Below, piece by piece: positions 13,220-27,245 of a DNA stretch of 30,513 bases. The first letter of the stretch is position 1; each line of letters opens with the position of its first letter. Source of the DNA: a virus; IMG/VR virus record IMGVR_UViG_3300021960_000331, positions 1-30,513 of that record. One strand, given 5' to 3'. The notes beneath the pieces are model-generated. The model saw only the letters and a program-made list of their open reading frames with translations, made no database searches and was not told where the DNA came from. Both the position numbers and the translations under genes were made by a program.

Positions 13220-14908
13220 TTAAGTTTTATAATTTCTGTCAAATATTTGACTAACAGGAAAGGAGGAATTAGATGCCCCCAGCTCAAAATTAGCCGCTCT
13301 AAAATAAACATAGTTGATACTATGTACAACAATATCTACAAAAGTAGATGCTTGGTAGGTATATGTATATTGAAACGTAGTTCCGCTATTTTCTATACCT
13401 GCTAATTCTGTAGTAGTTCCTGCAGAATATATACGAACTTCAGAATTAGCCTGAAGTCCCGTTAAAGTTAATGTAACTTGGTTTTCTATTACATTTACAG
13501 TAGCGCCTGTAGTTCTAATAGTAGGTGTAGTTCCGTTAGAGCTTACGCTTATGTCCAAAGTTCCACTGCCTACGTCTACCCATATTGTTTCTTGACCAGT
13601 GCTTCCGTTGGAGGCAGCATACCCAGTCCCTTTGCAGTCCCAAATCATAGAACCTGTACCCAAGCTAGTTAACTTAACGGCGTGTCCCCCTGAACCTCTT
13701 GTAAAAGAGCAATCAGTTAAGTTATTTAAATTTTCTGTTGTGACAGCTTGAGCCCCTGTCGATTCGGTCACAATACACTGGTCTAATACTGCTCCTGTAC
13801 CTAATGTAATAGGGGCACAGTTTACAAAAGAACATTCAGAAGCTGTTGAAGCTGCTACAAAAGACATACCAGAGCAGCCTGAAATACTGTTGCCTTTAAA
13901 GCTGTGCGCTGCAGCGTCAAAACTTAACGTGCCTGTCAGGTTCTCAAGCGAACAGCCGTACCAGTTACCCGTCTCAACATTACCGTCAGAGAAGTCAATT
14001 CCAAAGGTGTAAGAATCGTTTCCTACAATAGAAATTCCGTTACGTCCTCCCGTTGTACTTACTGGCTGTCCTAGCGAAAGGCTGTTAGTCCCAGATCCGC
14101 CGACTACATTTATTCCAGCAAATGTTAAAGGAACAGCATCAACTACACCGCCTTGATAATATAAAGGCTCTGCCGCAAAGATCTTAGAATCTTCGTCTGT
14201 AATCGTTGAAGCTGCCGCAGTTGTATCACCCAGCGTCACAGTCCCAGCAATTTCAATAGAAGTGTTTGAGTCATTCAATGCTCGGACTACGCCATATCTT
14301 TGAGTCGCTTCATTCGTAAGTAACTCATTAAACAAACCAAGCGTTGACGTTCCTGTTACTATTAGACCATTGCCAACATCGCAAGCGTCAAGAATCAAGT
14401 TATCAAATCGAGCCGTAGTACCGCCAACATCAGCGAACACTCCGATGTGCGTTATGTTCGATGTGTTTAACGTACCAGCACCGCCTGATCTAGTTTTAGT
14501 TGGATCAAGAATCATCCTGACCCACCCACCAGCGTAATTATCAGAGCCGTAATAAGTAAACAGCGAGTAATTGCTTGCTGTGGGCGTCCCTGAGCTTAAA
14601 CAAATACCAAAGCCATTCGCCGCTTGAGTATTTAACAAAGATGCCGCTAGGAAGTTGCCCCAAACATAAATCAATTGTCCTGCTTCTGTCGTTGAAAAGT
14701 TCAACGCCGAAGGCAACGCAACAAACATGGCAACGCCTTGCTTGCTCACCTGTACGGTGATTGCAGTTGATCCTTCTATAGAACCATCGGCAGCAGCCGC
14801 ACTTGGCGCGCCACCAGAGCCAGCATATTTAACAATGGTGACAGTATCACTGCCGTTATTAGCAGTAAACTGTCTACCATTACCATCCCATGCGACTGAT
14901 ACAGTCAT
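13220..14908 (-). CDS. Tail or fibre protein with beta-helix-like middle
   Basis: This 562-residue protein is Gly/Ser/Thr-rich. Residues about 260-440 contain irregular short repeats with small and aromatic residues and Cys (SFKGNSISGCSGMSFVA, ECSFVNCAPITLG, DCSFTRGSGGHAVKL), which look like turns of a right-handed parallel beta-helix as in phage tailspikes. The last 85 residues (LTGLQANSEVRIYSAGTT, then ENSGTTFQYTYTY, ending SQIFDRNYKT) form a beta-sandwich-like end that I recall from many marine phage tail proteins. There is no strong ribosome site directly upstream; the start shares a base with the stop of an 11-codon ORF (TAATG), which may feed ribosomes to it. Confidence 0.8.
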   Translation of the reverse strand: MTVSVAWDGNGRQFTANNGSDTVTIVKYAGSGGAPSAAAADGSIEGSTAITVQVSKQGVAMFVALPSALNFSTTEAGQLIYVWGNFLAASLLNTQAANGFGICLSSGTPTASNYSLFTYYGSDNYAGGWVRMILDPTKTRSGGAGTLNTSNITHIGVFADVGGTTARFDNLILDACDVGNGLIVTGTSTLGLFNELLTNEATQRYGVVRALNDSNTSIEIAGTVTLGDTTAAASTITDEDSKIFAAEPLYYQGGVVDAVPLTFAGINVVGGSGTNSLSLGQPVSTTGGRNGISIVGNDSYTFGIDFSDGNVETGNWYGCSLENLTGTLSFDAAAHSFKGNSISGCSGMSFVAASTASECSFVNCAPITLGTGAVLDQCIVTESTGAQAVTTENLNNLTDCSFTRGSGGHAVKLTSLGTGSMIWDCKGTGYAASNGSTGQETIWVDVGSGTLDISVSSNGTTPTIRTTGATVNVIENQVTLTLTGLQANSEVRIYSAGTTTELAGIENSGTTFQYTYTYQASTFVDIVVHSINYVYFRAANFELGASNSSFPVSQIFDRNYKT

Positions 14909-14959: not shown

Positions 14960-15670
14960 TTAAATTTTAATAGTTTTTTGAATTACAAGACCACTAAGAA
15001 CACTGTTCTCAAATCTTTTATAGAATGAATCAACTGCCGCTCCTGAAGGAACAAGCCTATATAAAGTTCCATTAGTATATGTATACTGATATACATCCCC
15101 ATCAGCTATTGTTTCAAGAAGTGTAGGCTCACTTGAATAACCACTAGCATAATCAATCCACTGAAGCTTTGGTTTTCTTGTAGCAGCAGACTCTGCACCA
15201 GTTACATACTGGATTATATTACTAAAAGAAATTGACTCTCCCCAAACACCGGGAGAAACTTCAAAGCATATCGTGTCATCTTTAATCTTGTGTTTAGGCA
15301 TTGGACCCATAGGGCCTTCGGGGCCTTCAGCACCTGCTATGCCTTGTGGTCCTGCAACACCATCAAATCCTTTAGGGCCTTGTGGTCCTATCTCACCTTG
15401 AGGGCCGTCCTTACCATCACGACCTTGTACTCCTGCAGGCCCTTGCTCTCCTTTAGGCCCTCTTTCACCCTGTGGTCCTGCCGGACCTGCAGCGCCTTTT
15501 AAAGCTTTTAAACGACGCTGTTGCGCTTCTAAAGCTTTAGCGTCTTCTGCAGCCTTAGCAATTTTAAAGATTCGTTTAATAGGATCAGAGTCGTTACCGC
15601 CGCCTACAAAGCCTAGACGCTTGAGAGGATCTTTCTCACCAAACCCTAACTTACGTAATGAATCAGCCAT
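14960..15670 (-). CDS. Collagen-like virion protein
   Basis: This 236-residue protein has three parts. Residues 1-58 are a helical basic head with a repeated motif (DPLKRLGF at 14-21, DPIKRIF at 29-35) and a short coiled-coil-like stretch. Residues 59-124 are 22 uninterrupted Gly-X-Y triplets, so this part should fold as a collagen triple helix. Residues 125-236 are a beta-rich tip ([41 protein letters not shown]). Proteins of this build are seen as tail fibre or decoration parts in marine phages, where the collagen stalk is a trimeric rod. The start has AAGGAT and overlaps the upstream stop (TAATG). It shares a DPLxRxxFVxGG motif with the upstream 1590-residue protein. Confidence 0.9.
15299..15496 (-). 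repeat. Collagen Gly-X-Y triplet array, 22 units
   Basis: A 9-base coding period gives 22 consecutive Gly-X-Y triplets (66 residues). GP-x triplets dominate, and Pro, Gln, Glu and Lys fill the X and Y places. The array has no break in phase. Confidence 0.95.
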
Positions 15671-18600
15671 TATCTATCCTTACTTAATAAACTTAAACCA
15701 CCCTTAGCTTTATTTTGTCTTGGGTCTGCTTTATCAAACTTAGAAGCAAAGGTGCTTTTAAATTGTTCAGGGTCAAAAAGAATATATGAATAAGGACTTT
15801 CACCTTTTATTCTTGCCTCTAGTTTATTCTTATACTTAACGCTGTCAAAACCGAAATCCTTTAAAACGCTTTGAAGTTCTTTGTTTACTTTAGCATTATA
15901 AATATTATAGCTTAAGCTATCTTCTAAACCTTCTTGCGACAGCTCCATAACTTTATTTATATACGGAGATACTTTGCGCTTTATAACACTAGAAACAGCT
16001 TCTGAGTTTACACCTTTTTGATTAGCTTGCTTAACAACAGCAGAGACAAAACTATTTAGGTTTTGACTATTTAGTATTTCTATTGCTCCCCAGTTTCCAT
16101 AATCGTCTTCTATAACTAAAGGGTTTTTAACATTTACATATCCTTTAGTAATTGCTTGAGGCGTATCCATTCCTGTCTGTTCTAACGCAGTAAGCATAGT
16201 TTCTTCTGACACTTCTTCTTTTGGTAAAGCATCATACTTTGTAAGTATAGAAGTTGCCTGACCTTTAGAGCCTACGTGAGTTCCAAGCTCTCTGGGCATA
16301 GCAAAACTTAATTCATAGTCAGTATCAAAACCATCAGAAGTTCCTCGATAGACAGGTTCTTTTTCTTTAGAGTCTTTTAAAAATTCTTTTAACGCTTTGT
16401 CTCGATCAACTTCTCTAACTACATCAGCCCGTAAAGGAACATCAGGAACCTTAAAAGATTTTAAAAGCTCTTGTTCTTCTTCGGTTAGCATAGATGCTTC
16501 AAAATCTAAAGTCGTTTTCTCTTGCTTTTTATCAAACATAGGATCTTTAGATTCTTTTACTATTTTTTTCTGTAGTAAAACATCTACTATTTTTTGTTCG
16601 GGTTCCCGCGCTTTTTGTGTTAGACCTTTAGAATCTAAGATATCTTGTATATGGGCTTTTGCTTCGTCCCCAAATTCATCTTCGTACTCGCCAGATAGTT
16701 TATATGTTTCTATTTCATCATCTGTATAGTCCCTAGCTCTGCTAAAGGCTTCCCCGCCTGTAATGTTTCCTTGATCGTCTACAAACTGCGGAAACTTTTC
16801 TTTCAGCTCATCTATGGTTAAATCGTGTTTTTCTTCAAGCAAAGCTTTTGTCTCTAGTTTTATAAAATCCTCAAACTCTGGATCATCTAATTCAGAAGGC
16901 ATATCTGAATCAGTTCTATAGACTTTTAAAATCTCTTCAGCCGCTTCTTCAGCCTCGTCATCTTTAACCATACGTTTACTATAATCTTTAATTACATCTT
17001 TTAAACTCTTCGATATAATTTTAGTTAATCCACCTGCTACAAAATTCATACGTTGTAAAGGATCTTGCCTGTCTTCTATGTCTGTAAAAGCTGTACCAGC
17101 CTGTTGGTTGTAAGGCATACCTGTCATTTTATCTATACGTTGATCAGGCTCAGAAGGAGCGTTAGGTACGTCTAGTACTTCACCGCCTTTAGCTAATTTA
17201 ATTTTAGGTTTTTCACCACGTATAAATTCTTTTTCAAATTGACGAGCGCCCGTCCTAATTTCTTTTCTTGTTTCTTTAGGCAGTGCAGAATAAAAAGGCA
17301 TCATACTTACAAAAGGATCAACAAGAGTGTATCCTTTAGCTGCTGTTAAGGCTTGTCCTACAAAAGGACCAGTAACTCCTGCGACAGGCCCTGCGATAGG
17401 CCCTAAAAATTCTGAAGCTTTTGAAGTTCTTTGAGCAACATCTAAATAAATACCATTACCACCCCAACGAGCCAAACCATCTAGTAATAATTCATTAGGT
17501 TCTTTTTTCTTATATTCAGAATCTTTATTAAAAAGCTCATTTCTTTGATAGTTAAGCATCATAGCAGCGCCCTGCATTGTCAATGCTGTTCCTAACACCT
17601 TACCAGAAGCTCCTATATCACCTTGAGCCACACCCCTTGCAGTACGTCTTACCATATCTTTAAGTATAGTGTTTGTAAAAGCAGCAGGATAAGCACTTAA
17701 TTGAAACAACATAGATGTAAAAGGACTTTTAGATAAAGCTAAAGATTTTATACCTGACTCTCTAGTAGGGTTAAGAATAATTTCATTAGTATATCGGGCC
17801 GCTCCTCGTTCTATTTGATAAATAAAATCATCTTCAATATTTAAATTACCTTTAGTTTTAGCGTGCCAGTTAAGACCCTTTTGAATATCTACATTTAATT
17901 CCAAAAGCTGATCAATCTTTGTTTGTATACGTGCTGTAGGTTTTTTGTCTCCGTGTTGTGCAATAGCCTTTAGATTATCTCTAATAATATCTTTACCTAC
18001 ATTAAAACTTGTAAGCTGCACTGTTTTTGTCCAAGGCTCCAATAAATTTAATCTAAAAAATCCTCTGTTTATTTTTTGTAAAGTAGGATTAGTTACCGAT
18101 TCGCCTGACAATCTTTCTACTTGATCTGCAGCGGCTTGCTCAAAAGCAATTCCAAACCTTTGAAGTTTTCTAAAAGCTTCTGGCTGTGACATGTTATGGT
18201 CTTTCATTACTCTATTTACCATTTTGTAGGTAAGTACTTCCATACCATCTTTAGAGGCTTTAGCAAAACCTTTAACAGTGTTATATACACCTCCCCTAGA
18301 AAGATTTAATAAAACCTCAGTTAAGCTGCTAAAAGTTGCAAGGGGCAACAAAGCTAGCCTATTAACTGTTGTAACGCCATCTACAAATAAATTACTAGCC
18401 GCCACGCCTTCTCCGGTTTGGGCTTTCCAAACTGTTTCAAGATCCTTCATAGCTTTTCTGCTTTCAGAAGCACCTAGTTCTTTTTCTATTTGGGGCTTAT
18501 AAAGCTTTTCAAAATCTTTCCACTGTGTAGCACCGAATACTTTTTTACGTGCCAGTTGTTTACTAATTTGATTATAGTAAGTATTTAATACATTCTGAGC

Positions 18601-20442
18601 ATCGTTGTCTAAAAACTTTTCAAAGGGTGCATCGTCTGTAAATTTAAACTTTCTTTTAGATAAGAAAAAATTACCGCTGCTTCCCTCGTCACCATACATT
18701 TCTTTTTTGTCTAACATGCTAGCAATAATATTACTGGCTTCTGCCCCATCTTTAGCTTCCCCAGATTTTATAAGAAGCTGTGCAAATTCTCTTTCATTCT
18801 TTTCAATAGCTTTACGATTCCAAATACGCGGAAAATAATTCTCTTTAATAAAAGAAGCATCATCATATAAACCCGCAGCTTTTAAGTCTTCTGCAGCTTT
18901 GTCTAAATCTTCTCGGATTTGTTTTGCTGCATTGTCAATAACATTATCCTTAGACTTTTGGCCACGTACAGAATTAGTAAGTTGTCTATAAGCAAGATCT
19001 CTGTTTTTTCCTTGATTAGATACTAAAACAGGATCTATAGCACGTTTCATGCTGACATAATATTCACCCAAAATATCTCCAAGAGTTTCGGCATAGTCTT
19101 GCCCTTCTTGCACACGCTCACCAAAAAAAGTTCTTTGTGCATCATATCTAAATTTACTTTGAAGTCTTCTAATTGTATCTGACTTAGAAGTGTAAGGATC
19201 TAAAAACGTAGATACACGACCACCGTAGTACGCAGGAGCTTGCTGCGCTACTGTTACTACTTTATTTAAAGCTGAAGCTATGCCTCCTTTAGACTTGCCA
19301 GACTCTCTGAAGTTTGCCATAAGGTTTTCTAAAAGTTCTTCTTGACCTTCTTGGCTAATATTATTTTTAGCGGCGTACTTTTTAACAGCTTCGTTAACTG
19401 CAGCTTCGTCATCAATAATTTTAAAAACATCTTCAATAAAAGCCACTGTACTGTCATCTAAACCTAAGCGCTCTTTAGCATATTCAATACCTTCATTGTC
19501 TACAAGCTCGCCTACCATGCCTTGTTCTGCAAGATCCATAGTATCTGTTTCTTGAGGGTCTGCGGCCCTTGCTATATTTTTTTTATCTAATTTAGATATT
19601 ACTATGTCTGTAAGTTTACCAAGTCCTGCGCCTATAGTTGCTCCTGCACCTATAGATGTTAATAAACGTGTTTTATCTATTTCAACAGCTTCTTGTAAAC
19701 CTACTGTAATATCTCTTGTCTGTCGCCCATAATCATCAAGACCTGAAAAAACACCGCCTCCTAAAGCACCGACCTTTGCAGGTGTAGCAAAAGCTTGAAG
19801 CCTAGAAGCTATGTTTCTTTGAACAGTTTGTTTAGCTAGTTGCTGTGCTCCTACCCGTGCAGCCGCACTTGTACCTCCACTAAAAGGTAATGCTAGAAGA
19901 CCTAAAAAATTTACTGGGTCAGTAAAGATATCTGTGGTTATATCCCCGGCAGCGCTTATAAACTCTTCAAAAGATCCTAAATCAGAGTCATCAAAACGCT
20001 GCCGTATGTTTTTATAAGCACGTAATACATTATCAGGTGCATCTTTGTAAAGACCAGCATTAGCAAAAAGAGTAGGTAAACGATAATCTTCGTCTCTAAG
20101 AGCTTCTATAATATCTGTATTAGAAGAAGCCGTAAAAATTTTGCTTAAAGCGCCTCTATTGTTTGCAAGATACTCAAGAACTACCTGACCATCTTGTTGA
20201 AACTGCTCATCATTTCTTAGATCTGAAACAGTTTCTCGTCTTGGGCTTTTAAACGAAGGCTTAGCTTCGCCTGTTATCTCAGCAAAATCTGGATAGCTTC
20301 CTTTATTTATCTCAGAATAATCTGGATAAATTTCTTCTTTTTTTTCTTCATCCTGTTTTTTTGTTTTATCTTCTTCTAGTAAAGATAGAACATAATTAGG
20401 ATTAGAATAAAGCTCTAATTCTTCTTCATCATATATAGGCAT
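15670..20442 (-). CDS. Giant internal/ejection virion protein with C-terminal ADP-ribosyltransferase-like domain
   Basis: This 1590-residue protein is the largest here and sits among internal virion genes, the place of T7 gp16-like ejection proteins. Residues 1-90 are acidic with a tandem YPDYSEINKG/YPDFAEITGE. Residues 160-290 hold Gly/Ala-rich hydrophobic stretches (SIGAGATIGAGLG). Residues 300-680 are charged and helical. Residues 690-1050 are the most hydrophobic part (LFQLSAYPAAFTNTI, FLGPIAGPVAGVTGPFVG), perhaps for crossing the membrane. A linker with AKGGEVLDVPNAPSEPD and DPLQRMNFVAGG follows (1083-1138). Residues 1364-1563 resemble ADP-ribosyltransferases of phage polyvalent proteins: VYRGTSDG, GTHVGSKGQA, GYVNVKNPL, GFDSVKYKN, then SYILFDPEQFKS. 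The end repeats an AKGG tag. The start has AAGGA. Ejection is inferred from context; the fold call needs a profile search. Confidence 0.82.
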   Translation of the reverse strand: MPIYDEEELELYSNPNYVLSLLEEDKTKKQDEEKKEEIYPDYSEINKGSYPDFAEITGEAKPSFKSPRRETVSDLRNDEQFQQDGQVVLEYLANNRGALSKIFTASSNTDIIEALRDEDYRLPTLFANAGLYKDAPDNVLRAYKNIRQRFDDSDLGSFEEFISAAGDITTDIFTDPVNFLGLLALPFSGGTSAAARVGAQQLAKQTVQRNIASRLQAFATPAKVGALGGGVFSGLDDYGRQTRDITVGLQEAVEIDKTRLLTSIGAGATIGAGLGKLTDIVISKLDKKNIARAADPQETDTMDLAEQGMVGELVDNEGIEYAKERLGLDDSTVAFIEDVFKIIDDEAAVNEAVKKYAAKNNISQEGQEELLENLMANFRESGKSKGGIASALNKVVTVAQQAPAYYGGRVSTFLDPYTSKSDTIRRLQSKFRYDAQRTFFGERVQEGQDYAETLGDILGEYYVSMKRAIDPVLVSNQGKNRDLAYRQLTNSVRGQKSKDNVIDNAAKQIREDLDKAAEDLKAAGLYDDASFIKENYFPRIWNRKAIEKNEREFAQLLIKSGEAKDGAEASNIIASMLDKKEMYGDEGSSGNFFLSKRKFKFTDDAPFEKFLDNDAQNVLNTYYNQISKQLARKKVFGATQWKDFEKLYKPQIEKELGASESRKAMKDLETVWKAQTGEGVAASNLFVDGVTTVNRLALLPLATFSSLTEVLLNLSRGGVYNTVKGFAKASKDGMEVLTYKMVNRVMKDHNMSQPEAFRKLQRFGIAFEQAAADQVERLSGESVTNPTLQKINRGFFRLNLLEPWTKTVQLTSFNVGKDIIRDNLKAIAQHGDKKPTARIQTKIDQLLELNVDIQKGLNWHAKTKGNLNIEDDFIYQIERGAARYTNEIILNPTRESGIKSLALSKSPFTSMLFQLSAYPAAFTNTILKDMVRRTARGVAQGDIGASGKVLGTALTMQGAAMMLNYQRNELFNKDSEYKKKEPNELLLDGLARWGGNGIYLDVAQRTSKASEFLGPIAGPVAGVTGPFVGQALTAAKGYTLVDPFVSMMPFYSALPKETRKEIRTGARQFEKEFIRGEKPKIKLAKGGEVLDVPNAPSEPDQRIDKMTGMPYNQQAGTAFTDIEDRQDPLQRMNFVAGGLTKIISKSLKDVIKDYSKRMVKDDEAEEAAEEILKVYRTDSDMPSELDDPEFEDFIKLETKALLEEKHDLTIDELKEKFPQFVDDQGNITGGEAFSRARDYTDDEIETYKLSGEYEDEFGDEAKAHIQDILDSKGLTQKAREPEQKIVDVLLQKKIVKESKDPMFDKKQEKTTLDFEASMLTEEEQELLKSFKVPDVPLRADVVREVDRDKALKEFLKDSKEKEPVYRGTSDGFDTDYELSFAMPRELGTHVGSKGQATSILTKYDALPKEEVSEETMLTALEQTGMDTPQAITKGYVNVKNPLVIEDDYGNWGAIEILNSQNLNSFVSAVVKQANQKGVNSEAVSSVIKRKVSPYINKVMELSQEGLEDSLSYNIYNAKVNKELQSVLKDFGFDSVKYKNKLEARIKGESPYSYILFDPEQFKSTFASKFDKADPRQNKAKGGLSLLSKDR

Positions 20443-20451
20443 TAAAAATCC

Positions 20452-22137
20452 TTAGTGACTAAATCCATTATGTGCTTTTTTAAATACATCGTAATAACTA
20501 TATCCTTTAGCATACTCTATATTTTTAAACTGAGGTGGTAAATTATTAAGTATTACTTCCCTAGCTCTTTTGTCTAAGTTACTAAAAGCATTATAAGATT
20601 CTTTTAAAAGCAACTGTTCTTCACCTTTGGTTATACCAATATTAGAAACGCCGCTGTTTTCTAAACTATAAAAAGCATCAAGAATATGCAAAGAAAGATT
20701 TTCTTTTGCTAAACCTAACCCGTTATTTTTTAAAGGATTTGTTGTAGTACTGTTTAGAAATATAAGACTAGATTTTTTTTCTATTTCACTATCTATACTT
20801 CTGAGCGTCATTGCAGATGCTAGCTCATACGATTGAGAAGGGCTCATACTAATTAAATTTTGGGTAGCTAACTGTCTGCTTAAACCAAATATTCTAGGTG
20901 CTAATGTTGCTTCCATTCCTTCTATATCAGATTCTAAATATGTACCTACTTCAATAGGCTCACCATTTTTTGAAGGCATTGACCTAAGCACGTTGTTAAA
21001 AGAACTAAGAACAACTTTTCTTTGCCCTTCAGTCATTTTTTCAGCAGCTAAACTAGGATCTAATTCAGTTTTAGACTCTGTAGTATTTACAATTTCTACA
21101 CCACTAGTAGTATAGCTTTTAGTAATTAAAGTAGTAACTTGTTGCCCAAGTGCGTTTGTAGTGGTAACAGACTCTTGAACTTGCCCTAATTTACCTTGTT
21201 CTAAAAATTCTCTGCTTCTTTCATCTGTAGGTACAAGTTTAGTTTCTGACCTATTTTTTTCAGGATGCTGAAATACTTTCTTAGTATAAGAAACTGTAAA
21301 AGCTTTGCCGTTAACGGAAAGAGATTTAAACACAGGTTCCGATGAAGCTTCTATCCAGTCTTCTTTATTATATTTTAAGTTATCTAATCTTTCAGCTACT
21401 CCCGCAAGTTCACTAACAGGAGCTTCATACCCTAAGCTTCTACGAGCTTCTAATAAAGAATTCCTAGTTATTTTTTGTTGGTTTATAAGAAGGTTTATTT
21501 TTTCTTCTTGTAAAGCTCGTTTATCTTTACCTGTAAAAAATTTAGACACTCCATCAGCCAGCATTCTTCCCGGAGTTCTTGGTTTAACATCACCAAAAAT
21601 AGCGTTGTATTCTTCAGGGCTTTTTATTTTATAGGCTTTTTCTACTTGAGAACGTAACCTATTTATATTTTGAGCAGTCCATTTTTTAGCTTCTTCTCTT
21701 AAAAGAGTTTCTGCGCTTTCGTCAAATTCTTGTTCATCATAAGTTTGCTTAAAATTTTCAAGAAGCCTTTCGTATCTTTTATTTGCGTAATAATTTTCAT
21801 CTCCTTGCGGATCTAATAAAGCTTGCTCGTTATCTGCAATAATAGTTTGCGCTATTTTATATCCACTTTCTTGTTTTCTTTTTTCAATTAAAGCAGTTTC
21901 AGAATTTAAAAACTCATTATATTTTTTTTCTTCTGGCCCCATGATTAAACTTTCTACGCCGCTTGTTATTAAATTACCCGCACCTTTAAGAAGAGGAGCC
22001 GCTAGGTAACTAAGATATTTATCTTTTCTAGCTTTCCTGCGATATTTATCTTCTTCTTTACGTCTACGGTTGTACTCAGCAGTAGTAGCAGAGCCTAAAA
22101 TAGAATAAGCTTTATACAAGTCGTTGTTGTCAGCCAT
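20452..22137 (-). CDS. Internal virion protein, helical
   Basis: This 561-residue protein has no family I can name. It begins with a short helix, then a strongly basic stretch (RRRKEEDKYRRKARKDK, 24-40) and a hydrophobic Gly/Leu segment (YLSYLAAPLLKGAGNLITSG, 41-60). Most of the rest is charged and predicted helical, with a Thr/Val-rich beta part near residues 320-360 (VTTTNALGQQVTTLITKSY). Size, composition and place between a 181-residue acidic protein and the giant ejection-like protein suggest a core or ejection component. Its ATG directly follows the upstream stop (TAAATG), with GGGAGAA as ribosome site. Confidence 0.78.
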   Translation of the reverse strand: MADNNDLYKAYSILGSATTAEYNRRRKEEDKYRRKARKDKYLSYLAAPLLKGAGNLITSGVESLIMGPEEKKYNEFLNSETALIEKRKQESGYKIAQTIIADNEQALLDPQGDENYYANKRYERLLENFKQTYDEQEFDESAETLLREEAKKWTAQNINRLRSQVEKAYKIKSPEEYNAIFGDVKPRTPGRMLADGVSKFFTGKDKRALQEEKINLLINQQKITRNSLLEARRSLGYEAPVSELAGVAERLDNLKYNKEDWIEASSEPVFKSLSVNGKAFTVSYTKKVFQHPEKNRSETKLVPTDERSREFLEQGKLGQVQESVTTTNALGQQVTTLITKSYTTSGVEIVNTTESKTELDPSLAAEKMTEGQRKVVLSSFNNVLRSMPSKNGEPIEVGTYLESDIEGMEATLAPRIFGLSRQLATQNLISMSPSQSYELASAMTLRSIDSEIEKKSSLIFLNSTTTNPLKNNGLGLAKENLSLHILDAFYSLENSGVSNIGITKGEEQLLLKESYNAFSNLDKRAREVILNNLPPQFKNIEYAKGYSYYDVFKKAHNGFSH

Positions 22138-22683
22138 TTACTTTTCTCCCAACAAAGACCGCTGTGCTGGCGGCTCTACGTTGTCTATCTTATTTGAAAG
22201 CTCTGCAGGAAAATCTTCGTCCATTTGGGGCTTTTGAATTGTATTTAGTTTTTGATTCATAATGGGAAGCTTTGTTTCTTCACCTTCTTCTTCGCCTTCT
22301 TCATCATCATCATCATCTGTAATAACAAAGTCTACGTCAGCTCTTTCTGCTAAGGCAGCTATCATATAAGCAAGAGGCTCAGCAATTAAGATCATCATAT
22401 CAGGATTAAACATTCCATCTTGAAATCCTTGAAACAGTAACACTTTTACAATGTCCATTACTGGAACACCTTCTTCAAGAGAATCTAAAAGGCTTATATA
22501 AGTTTCTTCTTCTGTAAGCATTTCAAAATAGTTTTCTAAAACATCTGTCCTGTCAGTAAACTGAGGAGGCTTTTCAAAAGGCGCAGGGTTTTCCGGATCT
22601 CTTGTTAAAGACTGTCCGGGTATAGGCCTATTAAAAGATGTACCAACTCTAAAAAAAGCATCGTCTAGTTCCTGATTAGCCAT
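22138..22683 (-). CDS. Small acidic virion-associated protein
   Basis: This 181-residue protein is acidic. Residues 88-115 form a hydrophobic helical stretch (GMFNPDMMILIAEPLAYM, then IAALAERA), followed by an acidic run of Asp and Glu (about 122-136, DDDDDEEGEEEGEE) and a Pro/Gln-rich tail. The acid run could be a flexible linker, a metal-binding patch or a DNA mimic. It sits between two internal virion genes and has a perfect GGAGG site. I cannot assign a function; a scaffold, chaperone or minor core protein is possible. Confidence 0.75.
   Translation of the reverse strand: MANQELDDAFFRVGTSFNRPIPGQSLTRDPENPAPFEKPPQFTDRTDVLENYFEMLTEEETYISLLDSLEEGVPVMDIVKVLLFQGFQDGMFNPDMMILIAEPLAYMIAALAERADVDFVITDDDDDEEGEEEGEETKLPIMNQKLNTIQKPQMDEDFPAELSNKIDNVEPPAQRSLLGEK
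22288..22320 (-). repeat. Low-complexity GAT/GAA codon run (Asp/Glu tract)
   Basis: Runs of GAT and then GAA/GAG codons (ATC and TTC triplets on the + strand) encode the acidic run of the 181-residue protein. Such triplet runs change length by slippage, so the run may vary between relatives. Confidence 0.7.
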
Positions 22684-22686
22684 TAC

Positions 22687-23790
22687 TTAACCTCCTTGTC
22701 CTGCATAACGCTGCATGTAACGATTATAAAAATCAACGCCGCCATAGTAGCCTTGTGGATCAGTATTAAGGACCGCCATGTTTTGCTGAGCAAATGCCTC
22801 AAAAGGAATGTTAAAAGCCTCTTGTTGGCTTTGAGCATAATTCCCAGACTGATAAGCATAAGGATTGTTTATAGCCCAAGAAGGGCCTTGCTTATATTCT
22901 TCTGGACCAAGGCCAACGGCTTTAGCTAAGCCTGTTTGAGCAACGCTACTTACTGCTTTTCCGGGGGCTTCTAACAGGCTTTTGTAAGCATATTCTCCAG
23001 CTTTACCCGGAGCAGCTTTTAAGGCCGCGCCTACAGTTGCTTCACCTGTCATTTTTTCAAGACCTTTAGAGAACCAATTTTGATCTTTAACTACCTCTGC
23101 TGGAGGAGCTATTTCAACCGGAGCAGAAGAAAAATTTAAATCTGTTTGAGCTTGTTCCATAAAGCCTGACTTTACCTCTCCAGTAAGCGGGTCTGTTACA
23201 GGGGTTGCACTTTGCACAGCAACACCTTCCGCTGCTTTAGTGCCTCCAAAAGCTGCAAGATCCGCTGCCGTTTTTTCTGCTACAGTCATTAAACCTCTGT
23301 CAGCAAAGTCTGTTGTAGTCGAGTTCCAAAAGTTGCTTGCTTGATCTCCAAGTTTTGAAAAGCTGTCAGTAAGCCGACCAGCAAAGCCCTCACTTCCAAA
23401 AGCTTGACCAAAAGTTTGACTCGTCCCTATTCCTAGCTTACCACCAACATACTTAGCAGTAGTACCAATAAAATCAGTAACAGCACTTGAAACAGTTTTA
23501 AAGCCCTGCCCAATAGTTTTAGCAAATGTACCAGCTTTACCCAGTACCCAACCAGCAGCCTTGCCTATAGAACCCAAGGCACCGCCTGCTAAGGAACTAA
23601 CAACATTACCAAAGCCTGCCATTAAAGCATTACCTATGCCCGGAAGAAGAAAAGACATAGCAATCTGACCTACAATGCCAATCTTATTCATAAACTTTCC
23701 AACTTTTTTAAATACGGATTTAACAGTTTTGCCAATTCTTTTCCAAACTTTGCCAACAGTTTTTTTCCATAGTTTTTTAAAAAACCCCAT
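22687..23790 (-). CDS. Internal virion protein with cationic amphipathic N-terminus and glycine-zipper segment
   Basis: This 367-residue protein starts with about 37 residues that alternate Lys/Arg with hydrophobic residues (FFKKLWKKTVGKVWKRIGK at 3-21, then SVFKKVGKFMNKIG), the make-up of a membrane-active amphipathic helix. Residues 38-115 are hydrophobic and rich in Gly, Ala and Ser at small spacing (LLPGIGNALMAGFGN, SLAGGALGSIGKAAG), like glycine zippers that pack or insert in membranes. The C-terminal third is Gln/Tyr/Asn-rich (YAYQSGNYAQSQQEAF). This suggests a pore or channel part of the ejection apparatus, analogous in role to T7 gp14 but not visibly homologous. AAGGAG precedes the start. 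Confidence 0.8.
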   Translation of the reverse strand: MGFFKKLWKKTVGKVWKRIGKTVKSVFKKVGKFMNKIGIVGQIAMSFLLPGIGNALMAGFGNVVSSLAGGALGSIGKAAGWVLGKAGTFAKTIGQGFKTVSSAVTDFIGTTAKYVGGKLGIGTSQTFGQAFGSEGFAGRLTDSFSKLGDQASNFWNSTTTDFADRGLMTVAEKTAADLAAFGGTKAAEGVAVQSATPVTDPLTGEVKSGFMEQAQTDLNFSSAPVEIAPPAEVVKDQNWFSKGLEKMTGEATVGAALKAAPGKAGEYAYKSLLEAPGKAVSSVAQTGLAKAVGLGPEEYKQGPSWAINNPYAYQSGNYAQSQQEAFNIPFEAFAQQNMAVLNTDPQGYYGGVDFYNRYMQRYAGQGG

Positions 23791-23807: not shown

Positions 23808-26800
23808 TTAACTTCCGCTAGTTACGTTTCTTAAAAGCCTAAAAATCTCTTCTCTTTTACTAGCCATATTTTTATCAGTCATAAAAGCCTCGTTAGAAAG
23901 TGCTGACTGAATAACAGTTATAAGTCTATCGTCTTGCGCCATGTCTGATCTAAAGTTTCTATCGGCTTCATCTCTTAGGTTTTGCCACATTTGAGTTTGC
24001 TCTGTAACATCCATTTGAAACTCAAAACCTGCTTGCTGTTGATTAGCCGCATTCTGAGCTGCAGTTTCTGCTGTGTTGGTGTTACGTCGCCATGCTAGAT
24101 CTGCTTGTTGAATTGCTTGAGCATTAGCAGCATTCCACTGTTCAGCTTGTGCATCTGCTTGAGCATTAAATTTAGCAACGTCAGCAGTGATTTGAGAATT
24201 ATATTGATCGGCTGCAAGTTGATTTCCTGCGTTTTGAGCAGCAATTTTATTCTGTTCAGCGGTATTAAACTGTGCCATAGCATTAGATTGAGATACGTTA
24301 AACTGGTTTATGTTAGCACTTAAAGAAGCCATAAATTGATTTGTTTGATTCTCTGAAGAAGCATTAAACTGTTTAGCAGCATTAGCAGCTGACTGATCAG
24401 ACAACATTCTTTGTTGTGCTAATTGTTGATCTAATACAATAGCCTGTTGTTTGTTATCTAAATTAGCCATATCCATAGCTAGAAAAGCCTGTGCGTTTTG
24501 AACGGCTAGTTTAGTTCTCTGGTCTACATTAGCTAAATCTAAATTAGCCATAGCTGTTGCATTCTGAATTGCAGCTTGTTGCTCGTTGTTTAAATTAGTT
24601 AAAGTTGCTGTCTGCATAAAAGCACTGTTGGCTAAAGCCATTTGCTGATTAGCATCAAACTGCTTCATATCCATATTGGAGTTAATTTGAGCATTAAACA
24701 TTGCAGCTTGCTGTTTATTATCTAGGTTAGCTAACCCCATCTGCTGGGCTAACTGGGCATTAACCTGTGCAGCCTGCATTTTTTTCTCATAGACCTGAAG
24801 CTCTGCTATGTTTTGAGCACTCATGTTTTCTGAGTCAGCTTGGTTTTTAGCAGAAAGATTAGCTAAAGACATTTTCTCTGCAGCACTTAACTGTGCCATC
24901 TCTGCGTTCTGTCTAAGCTGTTCATTCTTGGACATCACATCAACATAAGTAACGTACTCTTGAAGCTTCATACGATTAGCTTCAGTCATGTTTGCAGAAT
25001 CCGTAGCAGCTCTTTCAGCTAAATTAGCCATTTCCATTTGCTGATCATTGTTAAGATTTGCAAGCTCCATCTGCTGTGAAAGACCTACATTAGTCTTTTT
25101 AAAGTCTACTAAAGTTTGTAGATTAGTAAGGCGCTCTTGATTTTCTGCGCTCATTGTATCTTTAGCAGCGGCATTTTGCTCACTAAGATTCATCATTTCC
25201 ATGCGTAAAGAAGAGTCTAAGTTTGCTTTTTCCATATCTTGATCAAGCTCTGCTTGTCTCATGATACGATTAACTTTGGCTTGGTAGTTTGCTAACTTAG
25301 TTTGTTGTTCAGAAGTTAAGTTTTCTTTTCCTGCTAAGTTCATAGCTTCTAGGTTTGCTAAGTCCATACGACTTCCAGCATCTAAATTAGCTAACGCAGC
25401 TTGCTGACGCTGTGCAGACTCTTGAGACGCTCTCTGTTGAGCGTTTTGAATATTTTGCAGTCGCGTCTGTTGTTGCTGATCCGCAGTGGTCATCTTAGCT
25501 TGCTGCTTAAACTGGCCTTGCTGTACTTTAATTTGCTGTGCCATGTCAGCAGTTTGAGAAGCAGCAGTCTGACGATTAGCCAAGTTCTGCATACGTATCT
25601 GCATAGTATTCTGAGCAGAAGCTAAGTTAGCCTGTTGCTCATTACTTAGGTTTTGTGCTGCACGCTGCTGGAGGGCCTGTGCGTTGCTCTGAGCCATAGG
25701 TAAAGCACTTTGAATAATAGCATTAAACAAAGCATCACGGCCTACTGTGGACGCTGAGAGGCCTCTCTGAGCCATCTGTTGTTCTATAGCAGCTACTGCA
25801 GGCCTAGCCCACAGAGGGGTCTTACCTTCTTCCATACCAGCTAAAAGGTTTTCCATCTGTACCGAAACAAGAGCTTCTTGTGGTAAAGCTGCTACAGCTG
25901 CTACTACTTTAGGGTCTTCTCCAGTGTCTAACTGGGCTTCTACTTTTGCAGGATCTTCAGAGAGTGCTGCAGTTACTTCAGGAGGCATATTACCTACTAC
26001 AGCCAGCATGTCTGCTGCAGCTGCTGTACGTGCCTCTCCTGTAACGGCTTGCATAGAAGATGCAGCCATAGTCGGAACACCACCAATTTGAGAAGAATCA
26101 CCCTGTGGAGCAGTTCCTGTAATGGCTTCACGGCCTTCAAAGTCTACTGAAGGTGCATCACCTAATTGAACAGCAATACCGTTTTTAGCTTCTCCTACTT
26201 GAGCTGTTCTTTTTTCAGCTAGTTTAAATTCAGGTATATCTTCAAGATTAACACCTTCTTTAGAAACAATATTTAAAATATCTTGTTGTTCTCTTTCAGA
26301 AATAGTTTGAGCTATACGAGTAGCTACAGCAGGATCTTCTGCTTCAATAACCGTATATCGCTCATCGCTTAGTATAGCTTCTGCATAATCTTTATATTCT
26401 GGTCTTGTAGCAGCAGTTCCCTGAAGAGCTTCCATCTCTTGCTGTGTCATTGTAGCAGCTTCAGCTTCTTTAGTAAGTCCCGTTATAGGATCTACTTTAG
26501 CAATAGACTCTTCACTTACGGTTCCTTCAGCTGCTGTTGTAGGCCCTACACTTTCTGCCTTATCAGCTGTATAAGTTGCAGCCGTTACTTCGGTAGGTCC
26601 AGCAGCTTGATCTGCGGTAGCCGTTTCAGCAGTTAAAGTATCTGCAGTAATTTCTGTTGCAGTAACATCTGCAGGCCCTGAAACTTTTTGTATGTCGCCT
26701 TCTTGGGTCTGAAGACTAGGATCGTCCATTTGAAAATCATTTAAAGTTTTATTGCTTCCTAAAAGTCCTATCATTTCTTGTGGAGTTTTCTCAACAACAT

Positions 26801-27245
26801 TTGATCCGACAGTTAAAGTATATTTACCTGTTTCAGGATTATAAGTAGCTTGAGCAGTCCCGTCTTTAAAAGCTTGAGTTTCTGATAAAGCTGCATCCAG
26901 TTGCGTGTAATCAAAAGTTTGACCAGCTTTAACAACTTCGGCTTTAGGAGCTACATAAGGTTCTGTAGCTACGACTGAAGTAGTAGAAGGCTCTTGAGTT
27001 GGTTCTTCTACTGTAGGTGTAATAGTAGGTGAAGGCGTAGTCGGTTCACTTTCTTGATTAGGATTGGCACCACCACCGCCGTCCATGTTGTAGTCAGCCT
27101 CAGTATCTATATCTAAAGGGCCGCCATAAAACTTAGAAACCCTTCCACCCTGCTCATAATTAGCACGATTTTTATGATGTCGTTTACGCTTTAAGGCCCT
27201 GACGGCAGCATTTGAACTTCTTTTAGCGGCTGTTTTTTTACTCAT
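23808..27245 (-). CDS. Long hendecad-repeat virion protein
   Basis: This 1145-residue protein has four regions. Residues 1-45 are a basic head (KKTAAKRSSNAAVRALKRKR) with YEQGGRVSKFYGG. Residues 46-260 are Thr/Ala/Pro/Glu-rich and probably disordered (repeats of VTATEITADTLTAETAT type). Residues 261-516 are helical (PLWARPAVAAIEQQMAQRG, then LSASTVGRDALFNAIIQS). Residues 517-1088 are 52 units of an 11-residue repeat, consensus hydrophobic-x-hydrophobic-x-Asn-hydrophobic-x-x-x-Gln-Gln, with no insertion or deletion. It is Gln/Asn/Ala-rich and nearly free of Cys, Pro and Gly in this part. An 11-residue period suits a gently right-handed coiled coil or an amphipathic sheet of helices. Place among ejection-type genes suggests an internal core, tube or tape-measure part. 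Confidence 0.85.
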   Translation of the reverse strand: MSKKTAAKRSSNAAVRALKRKRHHKNRANYEQGGRVSKFYGGPLDIDTEADYNMDGGGGANPNQESEPTTPSPTITPTVEEPTQEPSTTSVVATEPYVAPKAEVVKAGQTFDYTQLDAALSETQAFKDGTAQATYNPETGKYTLTVGSNVVEKTPQEMIGLLGSNKTLNDFQMDDPSLQTQEGDIQKVSGPADVTATEITADTLTAETATADQAAGPTEVTAATYTADKAESVGPTTAAEGTVSEESIAKVDPITGLTKEAEAATMTQQEMEALQGTAATRPEYKDYAEAILSDERYTVIEAEDPAVATRIAQTISEREQQDILNIVSKEGVNLEDIPEFKLAEKRTAQVGEAKNGIAVQLGDAPSVDFEGREAITGTAPQGDSSQIGGVPTMAASSMQAVTGEARTAAAADMLAVVGNMPPEVTAALSEDPAKVEAQLDTGEDPKVVAAVAALPQEALVSVQMENLLAGMEEGKTPLWARPAVAAIEQQMAQRGLSASTVGRDALFNAIIQSALPMAQSNAQALQQRAAQNLSNEQQANLASAQNTMQIRMQNLANRQTAASQTADMAQQIKVQQGQFKQQAKMTTADQQQQTRLQNIQNAQQRASQESAQRQQAALANLDAGSRMDLANLEAMNLAGKENLTSEQQTKLANYQAKVNRIMRQAELDQDMEKANLDSSLRMEMMNLSEQNAAAKDTMSAENQERLTNLQTLVDFKKTNVGLSQQMELANLNNDQQMEMANLAERAATDSANMTEANRMKLQEYVTYVDVMSKNEQLRQNAEMAQLSAAEKMSLANLSAKNQADSENMSAQNIAELQVYEKKMQAAQVNAQLAQQMGLANLDNKQQAAMFNAQINSNMDMKQFDANQQMALANSAFMQTATLTNLNNEQQAAIQNATAMANLDLANVDQRTKLAVQNAQAFLAMDMANLDNKQQAIVLDQQLAQQRMLSDQSAANAAKQFNASSENQTNQFMASLSANINQFNVSQSNAMAQFNTAEQNKIAAQNAGNQLAADQYNSQITADVAKFNAQADAQAEQWNAANAQAIQQADLAWRRNTNTAETAAQNAANQQQAGFEFQMDVTEQTQMWQNLRDEADRNFRSDMAQDDRLITVIQSALSNEAFMTDKNMASKREEIFRLLRNVTSGS
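23982..25697 (-). repeat. 52 consecutive 33-bp (11-residue) coding repeats
   Basis: Residues 517-1088 of the 1145-residue protein split into 52 units of 11 residues in a single register. Examples in phase are MELANLNNDQQ (726), MGLANLDNKQQ (836), MDMANLDNKQQ (924) and MAQFNTAEQNK (990). Position 5 is Asn in most units, positions 3 and 6 are often hydrophobic, and positions 10-11 are often Gln. Divergence at the DNA level is high, so the repeat is kept at the protein level. Confidence 0.9.
24774..25433 (-). repeat. Four 165-bp (55-residue) super-repeats inside the 11-residue array
   Basis: Within the array, residues 605-824 form four blocks of five units each. In each block unit 2 carries (A)NL or AQL, unit 3 starts with Met and has NL, unit 4 has ENLTSEQ, DTMSAEN, ANMTEAN or ENMSAQN, and unit 5 has a (T/A/M/E)xLxx(Y/L) pattern with an aromatic or hydrophobic centre. 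The matching order shows duplication of a five-unit block. A fifth block (825-879) is much weaker. Confidence 0.75.

What the first reader, a model, noticed from the sequence alone, without database searches (positions are those of the whole stretch)
23982..25697. 52 uninterrupted 11-residue repeats in a virion protein
Splitting residues 517-1088 of the 1145-residue protein by 11 keeps Asn at position 5 and Gln near positions 10-11 through about 52 units with no insertion or deletion. Hendecads (3 helical turns) are known in right-handed coiled coils and in apolipoprotein- or LEA-like amphipathic helices, but so long an array without a phase break is unusual. Strict phase means length is under selection, as for a ruler, tube or membrane-lying helix. 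Its place beside ejection-type proteins raises the idea that it forms the trans-envelope tube or an internal core. The Asn ladder at a fixed position could form polar layers in the core.
Basis: seen in the sequence. Interest (0 to 1): 0.75.

Follow-up and report, generated by a model that had tools for sequence, protein, structure and literature searches.

The report
Phage helix protein with quantised length
A family of very abundant marine phages carries a long, glutamine- and asparagine-rich helical protein built from 11-residue steps, and across 226 relatives its length changes only in whole steps (one exception in 226), usually ten at a time, so its geometry is kept by selection; what it does is still a guess, most likely a DNA-delivery tube or core.

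Summary
The 1145-aa protein on the minus strand (23808-27245) has an unbroken 11-residue register over about residues 507-1078. Its profile score lies about 34 s.d. above shuffles. The window is a fragment of an HMO-2011-type podovirus.

The distance between the two conserved anchors flanking the array takes 17 values between 78 and 782 residues; 225 of 226 proteins are in phase modulo 11, and the exception is a 4-residue deletion. Long members grow in 110-residue steps. A 55/110-residue super-repeat underlies this. The N-terminal half of the same proteins has indels of any size.

The repeat is nearly free of Pro and Cys (12 and 0 in 76,855 residues). Two packed seams separate a charged from an uncharged Gln-rich face, as expected for a helix in a tube or sheet wall. 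The gene heads a conserved five-gene block.

Function is inferred. A phiX174-H-like DNA conduit or core is favoured. A trimeric fibre is the main rival, because three homologues end in an S74 chaperone domain. No sequence relation to T7 or phiX174 proteins was found.

The parts
23808..27245 (-). gene of the hendecad protein (1145 aa)
   Evidence: ORF; no Pfam/PHROG/PDB match
25797..27245 (-). residues 1-483: K/R-rich start then variable, Pro/Gly/Thr-rich region, freely indel-bearing among kin
   Evidence: alignment; pairwise gaps; Pro 6.7%, Gly 8.0% in N-terminal parts of the family
25677..25772 (-). residues 492-523: conserved anchor domain A (A.RGLSASTVGRDALFNAIIQSALPMAQSNAQ)
23982..25697 (-). 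residues 517-1088: the 52-unit hendecad array; in phase over 507-1078
24318..24416 (-). residues 944-976: anchor B (QQRMLSDQSAANAAKQFNASSENQTNQFMASLS), where the main hydrophobic seam moves from positions 3/6 to positions 1/4
24018..24140 (-). residues 1036-1076: anchor C (QWNAANAQAIQQADLAWRRNTNTAETAAQNAANQQQAGFEF), end of the clear register
22687..23790 (-). 367-aa neighbour, Gly/Ala-rich with a K-rich amphipathic start
   Evidence: family found downstream in most loci; weak PHROG tape-measure hit E=1e-4
22138..22683 (-). 181-aa obligate partner; found in exactly the same 27 of 50,697 phage records as the hendecad protein
   Evidence: AlphaFold2 pLDDT 79, no PDB fold match
20452..22137 (-). 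561-aa gene of the same block
15670..20442 (-). 1590-aa gene of the same block; PHROG 'endolysin' family and a sub-threshold ART-PolyVal C-terminus

Best explanation
Shown: a long virus-only protein family of HMO-2011-type podoviruses contains an in-register array of 11-residue helical repeats. The number of repeats changes between relatives, but the register is kept: changes are whole hendecads, mostly blocks of ten. Inferred: each chain is a long rod of alpha-helix (3 turns per 11 residues), possibly kinked once or twice per 55 residues. It packs against neighbours on two sides, leaving a charged, variable outer face (positions 2 and 9) and an uncharged Gln/Ser/Asn face (positions 7 and 11). 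Inferred from the arrangement: several copies form a tube or core wall, held in the particle and used during DNA delivery together with the 367-, 181-, 561- and 1590-aa proteins encoded next to it. It would work like the amide-lined hendecad tube of the phiX174 pilot protein H. Adding a helical block lengthens the rod without disturbing side-to-side packing, which explains why only whole hendecads are tolerated.
For: Register unbroken. Phase kept in 225 of 226 homologues, with the B-C distance also 4 mod 11 in all 222 measured. Indels in the array of paired relatives are 110, 110, 121, 121, 110, 110, 11 and 88, while the N-terminal parts gap at any size. About 32 length changes on the partner-gene tree. 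12 Pro and 0 Cys in 76,855 repeat residues, against 6.7% Pro upstream. Wheel: positions 3/6/10 and 1/5/8 form two seams about 165 degrees apart; only 2 and 9 are charged and variable; Gly is almost absent at 4, 8 and 10. AlphaFold2 gives a continuous 141-residue helix in the C-terminal part, pLDDT about 70-80 over most of it. Block of genes conserved and 27/27 co-occurrence with the 181-aa protein. phiX174 H precedent: hendecads with N/Q/R-lined lumen (PMC7354561); H also shows a lag-11 signal, T7 gp14-16 do not.
Against: No sequence or family link to any ejection protein, and no proteomic proof that it is in the virion. AlphaFold2 of the monomer is low-confidence overall (pLDDT 55.6) and breaks the helix at roughly 55-residue spacing. 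Gly (4.7-13%) and all 12 prolines cluster at a few phases of the 55-mer, so kinks or hairpins are possible. A fully extended chain of this window's length (about 86 nm at 1.5 A per residue) would not fit straight inside a podovirus head. Three homologues end in an S74 trimerising chaperone. In the B-C part only one clear hydrophobic seam (1/4/8) remains.
Confidence: 0.4

Rival explanations
1. It is a trimeric right-handed coiled-coil stalk or fibre of the tail. Three chains wind together through the hendecad core and the S74 chaperone of some members drives the trimer to form; length variation is the usual modular growth of fibres.
For: Pfam Peptidase_S74 at the C-terminus of the CRP-212, CRP-3 and CRP-738 versions, above the curated cut-off. 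Genes just upstream are fibre genes: S74 fibres in the window and many fibre annotations in HMO-2011. In the B-C part the core is a single seam of Phe and Val/Ile.
Against: Only positions 2 and 9 look exposed and charged; a trimer would leave most of 11 positions exposed. Conserved and variable ends are the reverse of a receptor fibre: the N-terminus is hypervariable and the C-terminus conserved. The window protein and most kin lack S74.
Confidence: 0.28
2. It is an internal core protein in which 55-residue arms fold back on each other as antiparallel helical hairpins. A 110-residue step is one complete hairpin, which keeps both chain ends on the same side.
For: Super-repeat of 55 with steps of 110 and no 287, 397 or 507 class seen. 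AlphaFold2 helix breaks at about 55-residue spacing. Gly at phases 8, 10, 18 and 25, and all 12 Pro at phase 8-9, helix-start positions of the 55-mer.
Against: The 11-residue register runs straight through those sites. Gly is 1.2% and Pro almost absent, unusual for a protein with a turn every 55 residues. AlphaFold monomer models of coiled coils are known to bend spuriously (abstract of PMC11676326).
Confidence: 0.22
3. The regular spacing is a by-product of DNA-level repeat expansion and contraction, with no selection for phase.
For: Recombination between 33- or 330-bp repeats would produce multiples of 11 by itself (general knowledge).
Against: Present repeats are only about 0.38-0.47 identical at DNA level at the best lags; Asn-5 uses both codons (20 AAT, 14 AAC); no off-phase indel except one 4-residue change in 226 proteins, while the N-terminal half of the same genes has many; site conservation follows the register.
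Confidence: 0.06
4. It is a membrane-lying amphipathic or LEA/apolipoprotein-like protein.
For: 11/22-residue helical repeats; 22 is the strongest short lag in the window protein.
Against: No Pfam match; two packed seams instead of one hydrophobic face; nearly no Pro (apolipoprotein 22-mers are Pro-punctuated, from general knowledge); N+Q about 30%.
Confidence: 0.04

Closest known systems
phiX174 DNA pilot protein H (PDB 4JPP, 4JPN)
   Same: Hendecad helical repeats rich in Gln/Asn. Table 1 of PMC7354561 gives QKELTKMQLDN and related units; setting its hydrophobic positions 4 and 7 on positions 3 and 6 here puts its Gln 1 and Gln 8 on the Gln-rich positions 11 and 7 (my mapping).
   Different: Three hendecads then heptads, against about 50 hendecads with no heptads here; ssDNA microvirus; no sequence similarity; decameric state unknown here.
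T7 gp14/gp15/gp16 and P22 gp7/gp20/gp16 ejection proteins
   Same: Position in the genome: one small (about 180 aa), one mid-size and one very large gene in a row, downstream of this gene.
   Different: No detectable homology of this protein or its neighbours to T7 gp13-16; T7 proteins show no 11-residue period; P22 was not compared by sequence.
S74-chaperone trimeric phage fibres
   Same: Three relatives carry a C-terminal Peptidase_S74 domain.
   Different: Window protein and most kin lack it; conserved and variable ends are reversed.
Phage tape-measure proteins
   Same: Long helical protein with length variation.
   Different: Podovirus without a long tail; this protein has no tape-measure match.

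Membership tests
hendecad (11/3) helical repeat / coiled coil | sequence period of 11 far above chance and unbroken | tested here: met
hendecad (11/3) helical repeat / coiled coil | hydrophobic positions spaced 3-4-4 | tested here: met
   positions 3/6/10 (Leu, Leu, Gln) and 1/4/8; the third position of each seam is often polar
hendecad (11/3) helical repeat / coiled coil | continuous helix | tested here: inconclusive
   almost no Pro, but AlphaFold2 low confidence with breaks and Gly/Pro clustered at 55-mer phases
hendecad (11/3) helical repeat / coiled coil | right-handed supercoil and a defined oligomer | not testable with these tools
   no multimer prediction available
phiX174 H pilot protein | sequence homology | tested here: not met
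   phmmer and profile searches of the PDB do not return 4JPP/4JPN
phiX174 H pilot protein | amide-rich face along the helix | tested here: met
   positions 7 and 11 Gln/Ser/Asn, low charge
phiX174 H pilot protein | tube that conducts DNA | not testable with these tools
   needs structure and genetics
T7-type ejection proteins | sequence or profile similarity to gp14/15/16 | tested here: not met
   hhalign probabilities under 1%
T7-type ejection proteins | gene block small-middle-large in order | tested here: met
   block described in PMC8954989
T7-type ejection proteins | packaged in the head and ejected | not testable with these tools
   no proteomics found
S74 trimeric fibre | C-terminal S74 domain | tested here: not met
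   absent in the window protein; present in CRP-3, CRP-212 and CRP-738 homologues
S74 trimeric fibre | conserved N-terminal attachment part, variable distal part | tested here: not met
   N-terminus variable, array and C-terminus conserved

The most novel reading that the evidence does not exclude
A length-quantised DNA-delivery tube in dsDNA marine podoviruses. The wall is made of amide-lined hendecad helices, and the 110-residue step (ten hendecads, about 165 A if extended) is a physical unit of the tube, so phages lengthen or shorten it only by whole units. It would be a dsDNA-phage counterpart, evolved independently, of the phiX174 H tube.
Probability: 0.2. Interest if true: 0.85.

Novelty: new variant of a known kind. 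Interest (0 to 1): 0.62.

Why it matters
[quoted passage not shown] The papers found do not describe the repeat. The family is a natural experiment on how selection preserves helical register: 16 in-phase lengths spanning tenfold, one 4-residue exception, and a 110-residue quantum. If it is the delivery tube, it opens DNA entry in SAR11, SAR116 and roseobacter phages to direct test, and it gives long natural designs of helical tubes or bundles.

Tried and rejected
Pfam and PHROG scans of the protein and of 41 members gave nothing. PDB sequence searches gave nothing but a chance KMP-11 hit. hhalign of this family and its neighbours against T7 gp13-16 gave nothing. A suspected kinship of the anchor motif with T7 gp14, recalled from memory, was not borne out.

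AlphaFold2 of residues 484-1145 was too weak for a fold search. The 181-aa partner folded well (pLDDT 79) but has no PDB match; the one strong viral hit (A0A346HW51, 27% identity) has no name in the tables.

A shared 'KGG' motif as a packaging signal was tested and dropped: it is no commoner in this block than elsewhere. The C-terminal domain of the HMO-2011 version was found in no other phage record. Genome collection hits are contigs of metagenome-assembled genomes, probably phage DNA binned with hosts. No proteomics of a relative was found in the papers read.

Full report
What is there. The window is a 30,513-bp viral contig holding replication genes on one strand and a structural module on the other. 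The nearest isolates are HMO-2011-type podoviruses: the hendecad protein is found in 27 of 50,697 phage records (Pelagibacter HTVC103P/104P/115P/033P, Puniceispirillum HMO-2011, the roseobacter CRP phages, Vibrio CHOED, Aeromonas MQM1 and 1233, Pseudoalteromonas Slicky01, Sinorhizobium phiM6, three Rhizobium phages and an unnamed podovirus). In the records I opened it is called 'hypothetical protein' (in one, 'huntingtin'). It has no Pfam, PHROG or PDB relative.

The observation. The ORF is 23808-27245 on the minus strand. Lags 11, 22, 33 and 44 stand out (z 7.7, 8.9, 5.9, 7.0) and the first 516 residues show no such period. With a hendecad profile trained on other members (close kin left out), every 44-residue window from 507-550 to 1035-1078 chooses the same phase, and the array scores 337.5 against -439.5 (s.d. 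22.8) for shuffles. Asn is at position 5 in 34 of 52 units.

Seven relatives at 53-83% identity have no insertion or deletion at all in the repeat, while their N-terminal parts differ widely. To reach further I used two conserved anchors, A (A.RGLS..PIAQ.NA) and B (NQAA.NAA.QFNA.S.NQ), and a third, C (Q.NVQWRR..NTA). In 226 unique proteins the A-B distance takes 17 values: 78, 100, 122, 144, 151, 155, 166, 188, 221, 232, 276, 331, 342, 452, 562, 672 and 782. All except 151 equal 1 modulo 11; the single 151 protein (L080) is a 155-type array with four residues missing, one hendecad turned into a heptad. All 222 B-C distances equal 4 modulo 11. The ladder 122-232-342-452-562-672-782, and also 166-276 and 221-331, moves in steps of 110. 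Longer members show a 55- and 110-residue super-repeat (z above 20 in the 782 class), yet the intermediate 55-steps (287, 397, 507) were not seen.

Selection or DNA mechanics? On a tree of the neighbouring 181-aa gene the length changes about 32 times, at least 14; recombination of the gene between lineages could inflate that number. Pairwise alignments of relatives show single gaps of 110, 110, 121, 121, 110, 110, 11 and 88 in the array (more diverged pairs split into pieces that sum to multiples of 11), while in the N-terminal half gaps have any size (8 of 39 gaps of 11 or more are multiples of 11). Repeats are no longer similar as DNA (best self-identity 0.41-0.47), so slippage between near-identical copies does not explain the pattern. 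Conservation of single sites follows the register (positions 10, 5, 6 and 11 most conserved, 9 and 7 least). I conclude that phase is under selection; blocks are probably added by recombination and kept only if in phase (inference).

Anatomy. The N-terminal part starts K/R-rich and is then Pro/Gly-rich and variable (6.7% Pro, 8% Gly). In the repeats there are 12 Pro and no Cys among 76,855 residues. The consensus of the A-B part is [AMV]-x-[LM]-[AQ]-N-[LA]-[QSN]-[NA]-x-Q-Q. On an 11/3 wheel positions 3, 6, 10 and 1, 5, 8 form two seams about 165 degrees apart; 2 and 9 are charged and variable; 7 and 11 are uncharged Gln, Ser, Asn. Gly is tolerated at 2, 7 and 9 and nearly absent at 4, 8 and 10. 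A helix packed on two sides with two different exposed faces is what a tube or sheet wall needs. After anchor B the strong hydrophobic seam moves to 1/4/8, with Phe at 4. AlphaFold2 on 41 sequences gives one 141-residue helix near the C-terminus (pLDDT about 70-80 over most of it) and otherwise low confidence with breaks at about 55-residue spacing. All 12 prolines and most glycines fall at a few phases of the 55-mer, so kinks or hairpins remain possible.

Neighbourhood. Downstream, in conserved order, come a roughly 370-aa gene (often replaced by a short one), the 181-aa gene, a roughly 560-aa gene and a 1100-1900-aa gene. A consensus of the 181-aa protein finds the same 27 phage records and no others. 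The block has the size pattern of podovirus ejection genes (PMC8954989), but hhalign finds no similarity to T7 gp13-16. The 1590-aa protein belongs to a PHROG called 'endolysin' (E=3e-137) and has a sub-threshold ART-PolyVal match, which hints at a protein delivered into the host.

How it may work. I favour (0.4) a multi-chain helical tube or core used in DNA delivery, by analogy with phiX174 H, whose tube (residues 151-271) begins with hendecads and whose lumen is lined by Asn, Gln and Arg (PMC7354561). The rivals are a trimeric fibre (0.28), with S74 chaperone domains in CRP-3, CRP-212 and CRP-738 as its best support, and a folded antiparallel core (0.22). The steps from sequence to tube are inferred; period, phase and quantised length are shown.

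Novelty. Hendecad repeats and phage helical tubes are known. A family of this length, with length quantised by 11 and mostly by 110, was not described in the papers found (the library is open-access only). I file it as a new variant of a known kind, with an unknown function.

Noticed in passing
15670-20442, residues 1430-1567 of the 1590-aa protein: Sub-threshold match to ART-PolyVal (E=9.6e-4, 20.4 bits against a cut-off of 31.2), an ADP-ribosyltransferase-like domain of polyvalent phage proteins; it may be delivered into the host.
   Followed up: no
L009 (HTVC115P) 13504-13953: A gene annotated 'toxin-activating lysine-acyltransferase' sits directly after the hendecad gene; it could acylate a neighbouring virion protein. 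Seen in one phage only.
   Followed up: no
L025, L023, L024 (CRP-212, CRP-3, CRP-738): The hendecad protein ends in a Peptidase_S74 chaperone domain in this subgroup only.
   Followed up: partly
L010 15937-16161: The HMO-2011 version carries an extra 75-aa C-terminal domain (CWVAREVYG...) found in no other phage record; a similar tail occurs in L097.
   Followed up: partly
window 22138-22683: The 181-aa partner has a confidently predicted fold (pLDDT above 90 over most of residues 31-120) with no match in the PDB.
   Followed up: partly
L080 around the A-B array: The only off-phase member of 226: four residues lost, a hendecad turned into a heptad.
   Followed up: yes
L071, L142, L146, L147, L152-L156, L167, L171: All 12 prolines of the family's arrays lie at one 55-mer site (ANLSPALQ), a helix-start pattern.
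   Followed up: partly
14960-15670: Collagen-like Gly-x-y protein (236 aa) directly after the block.
   Followed up: no
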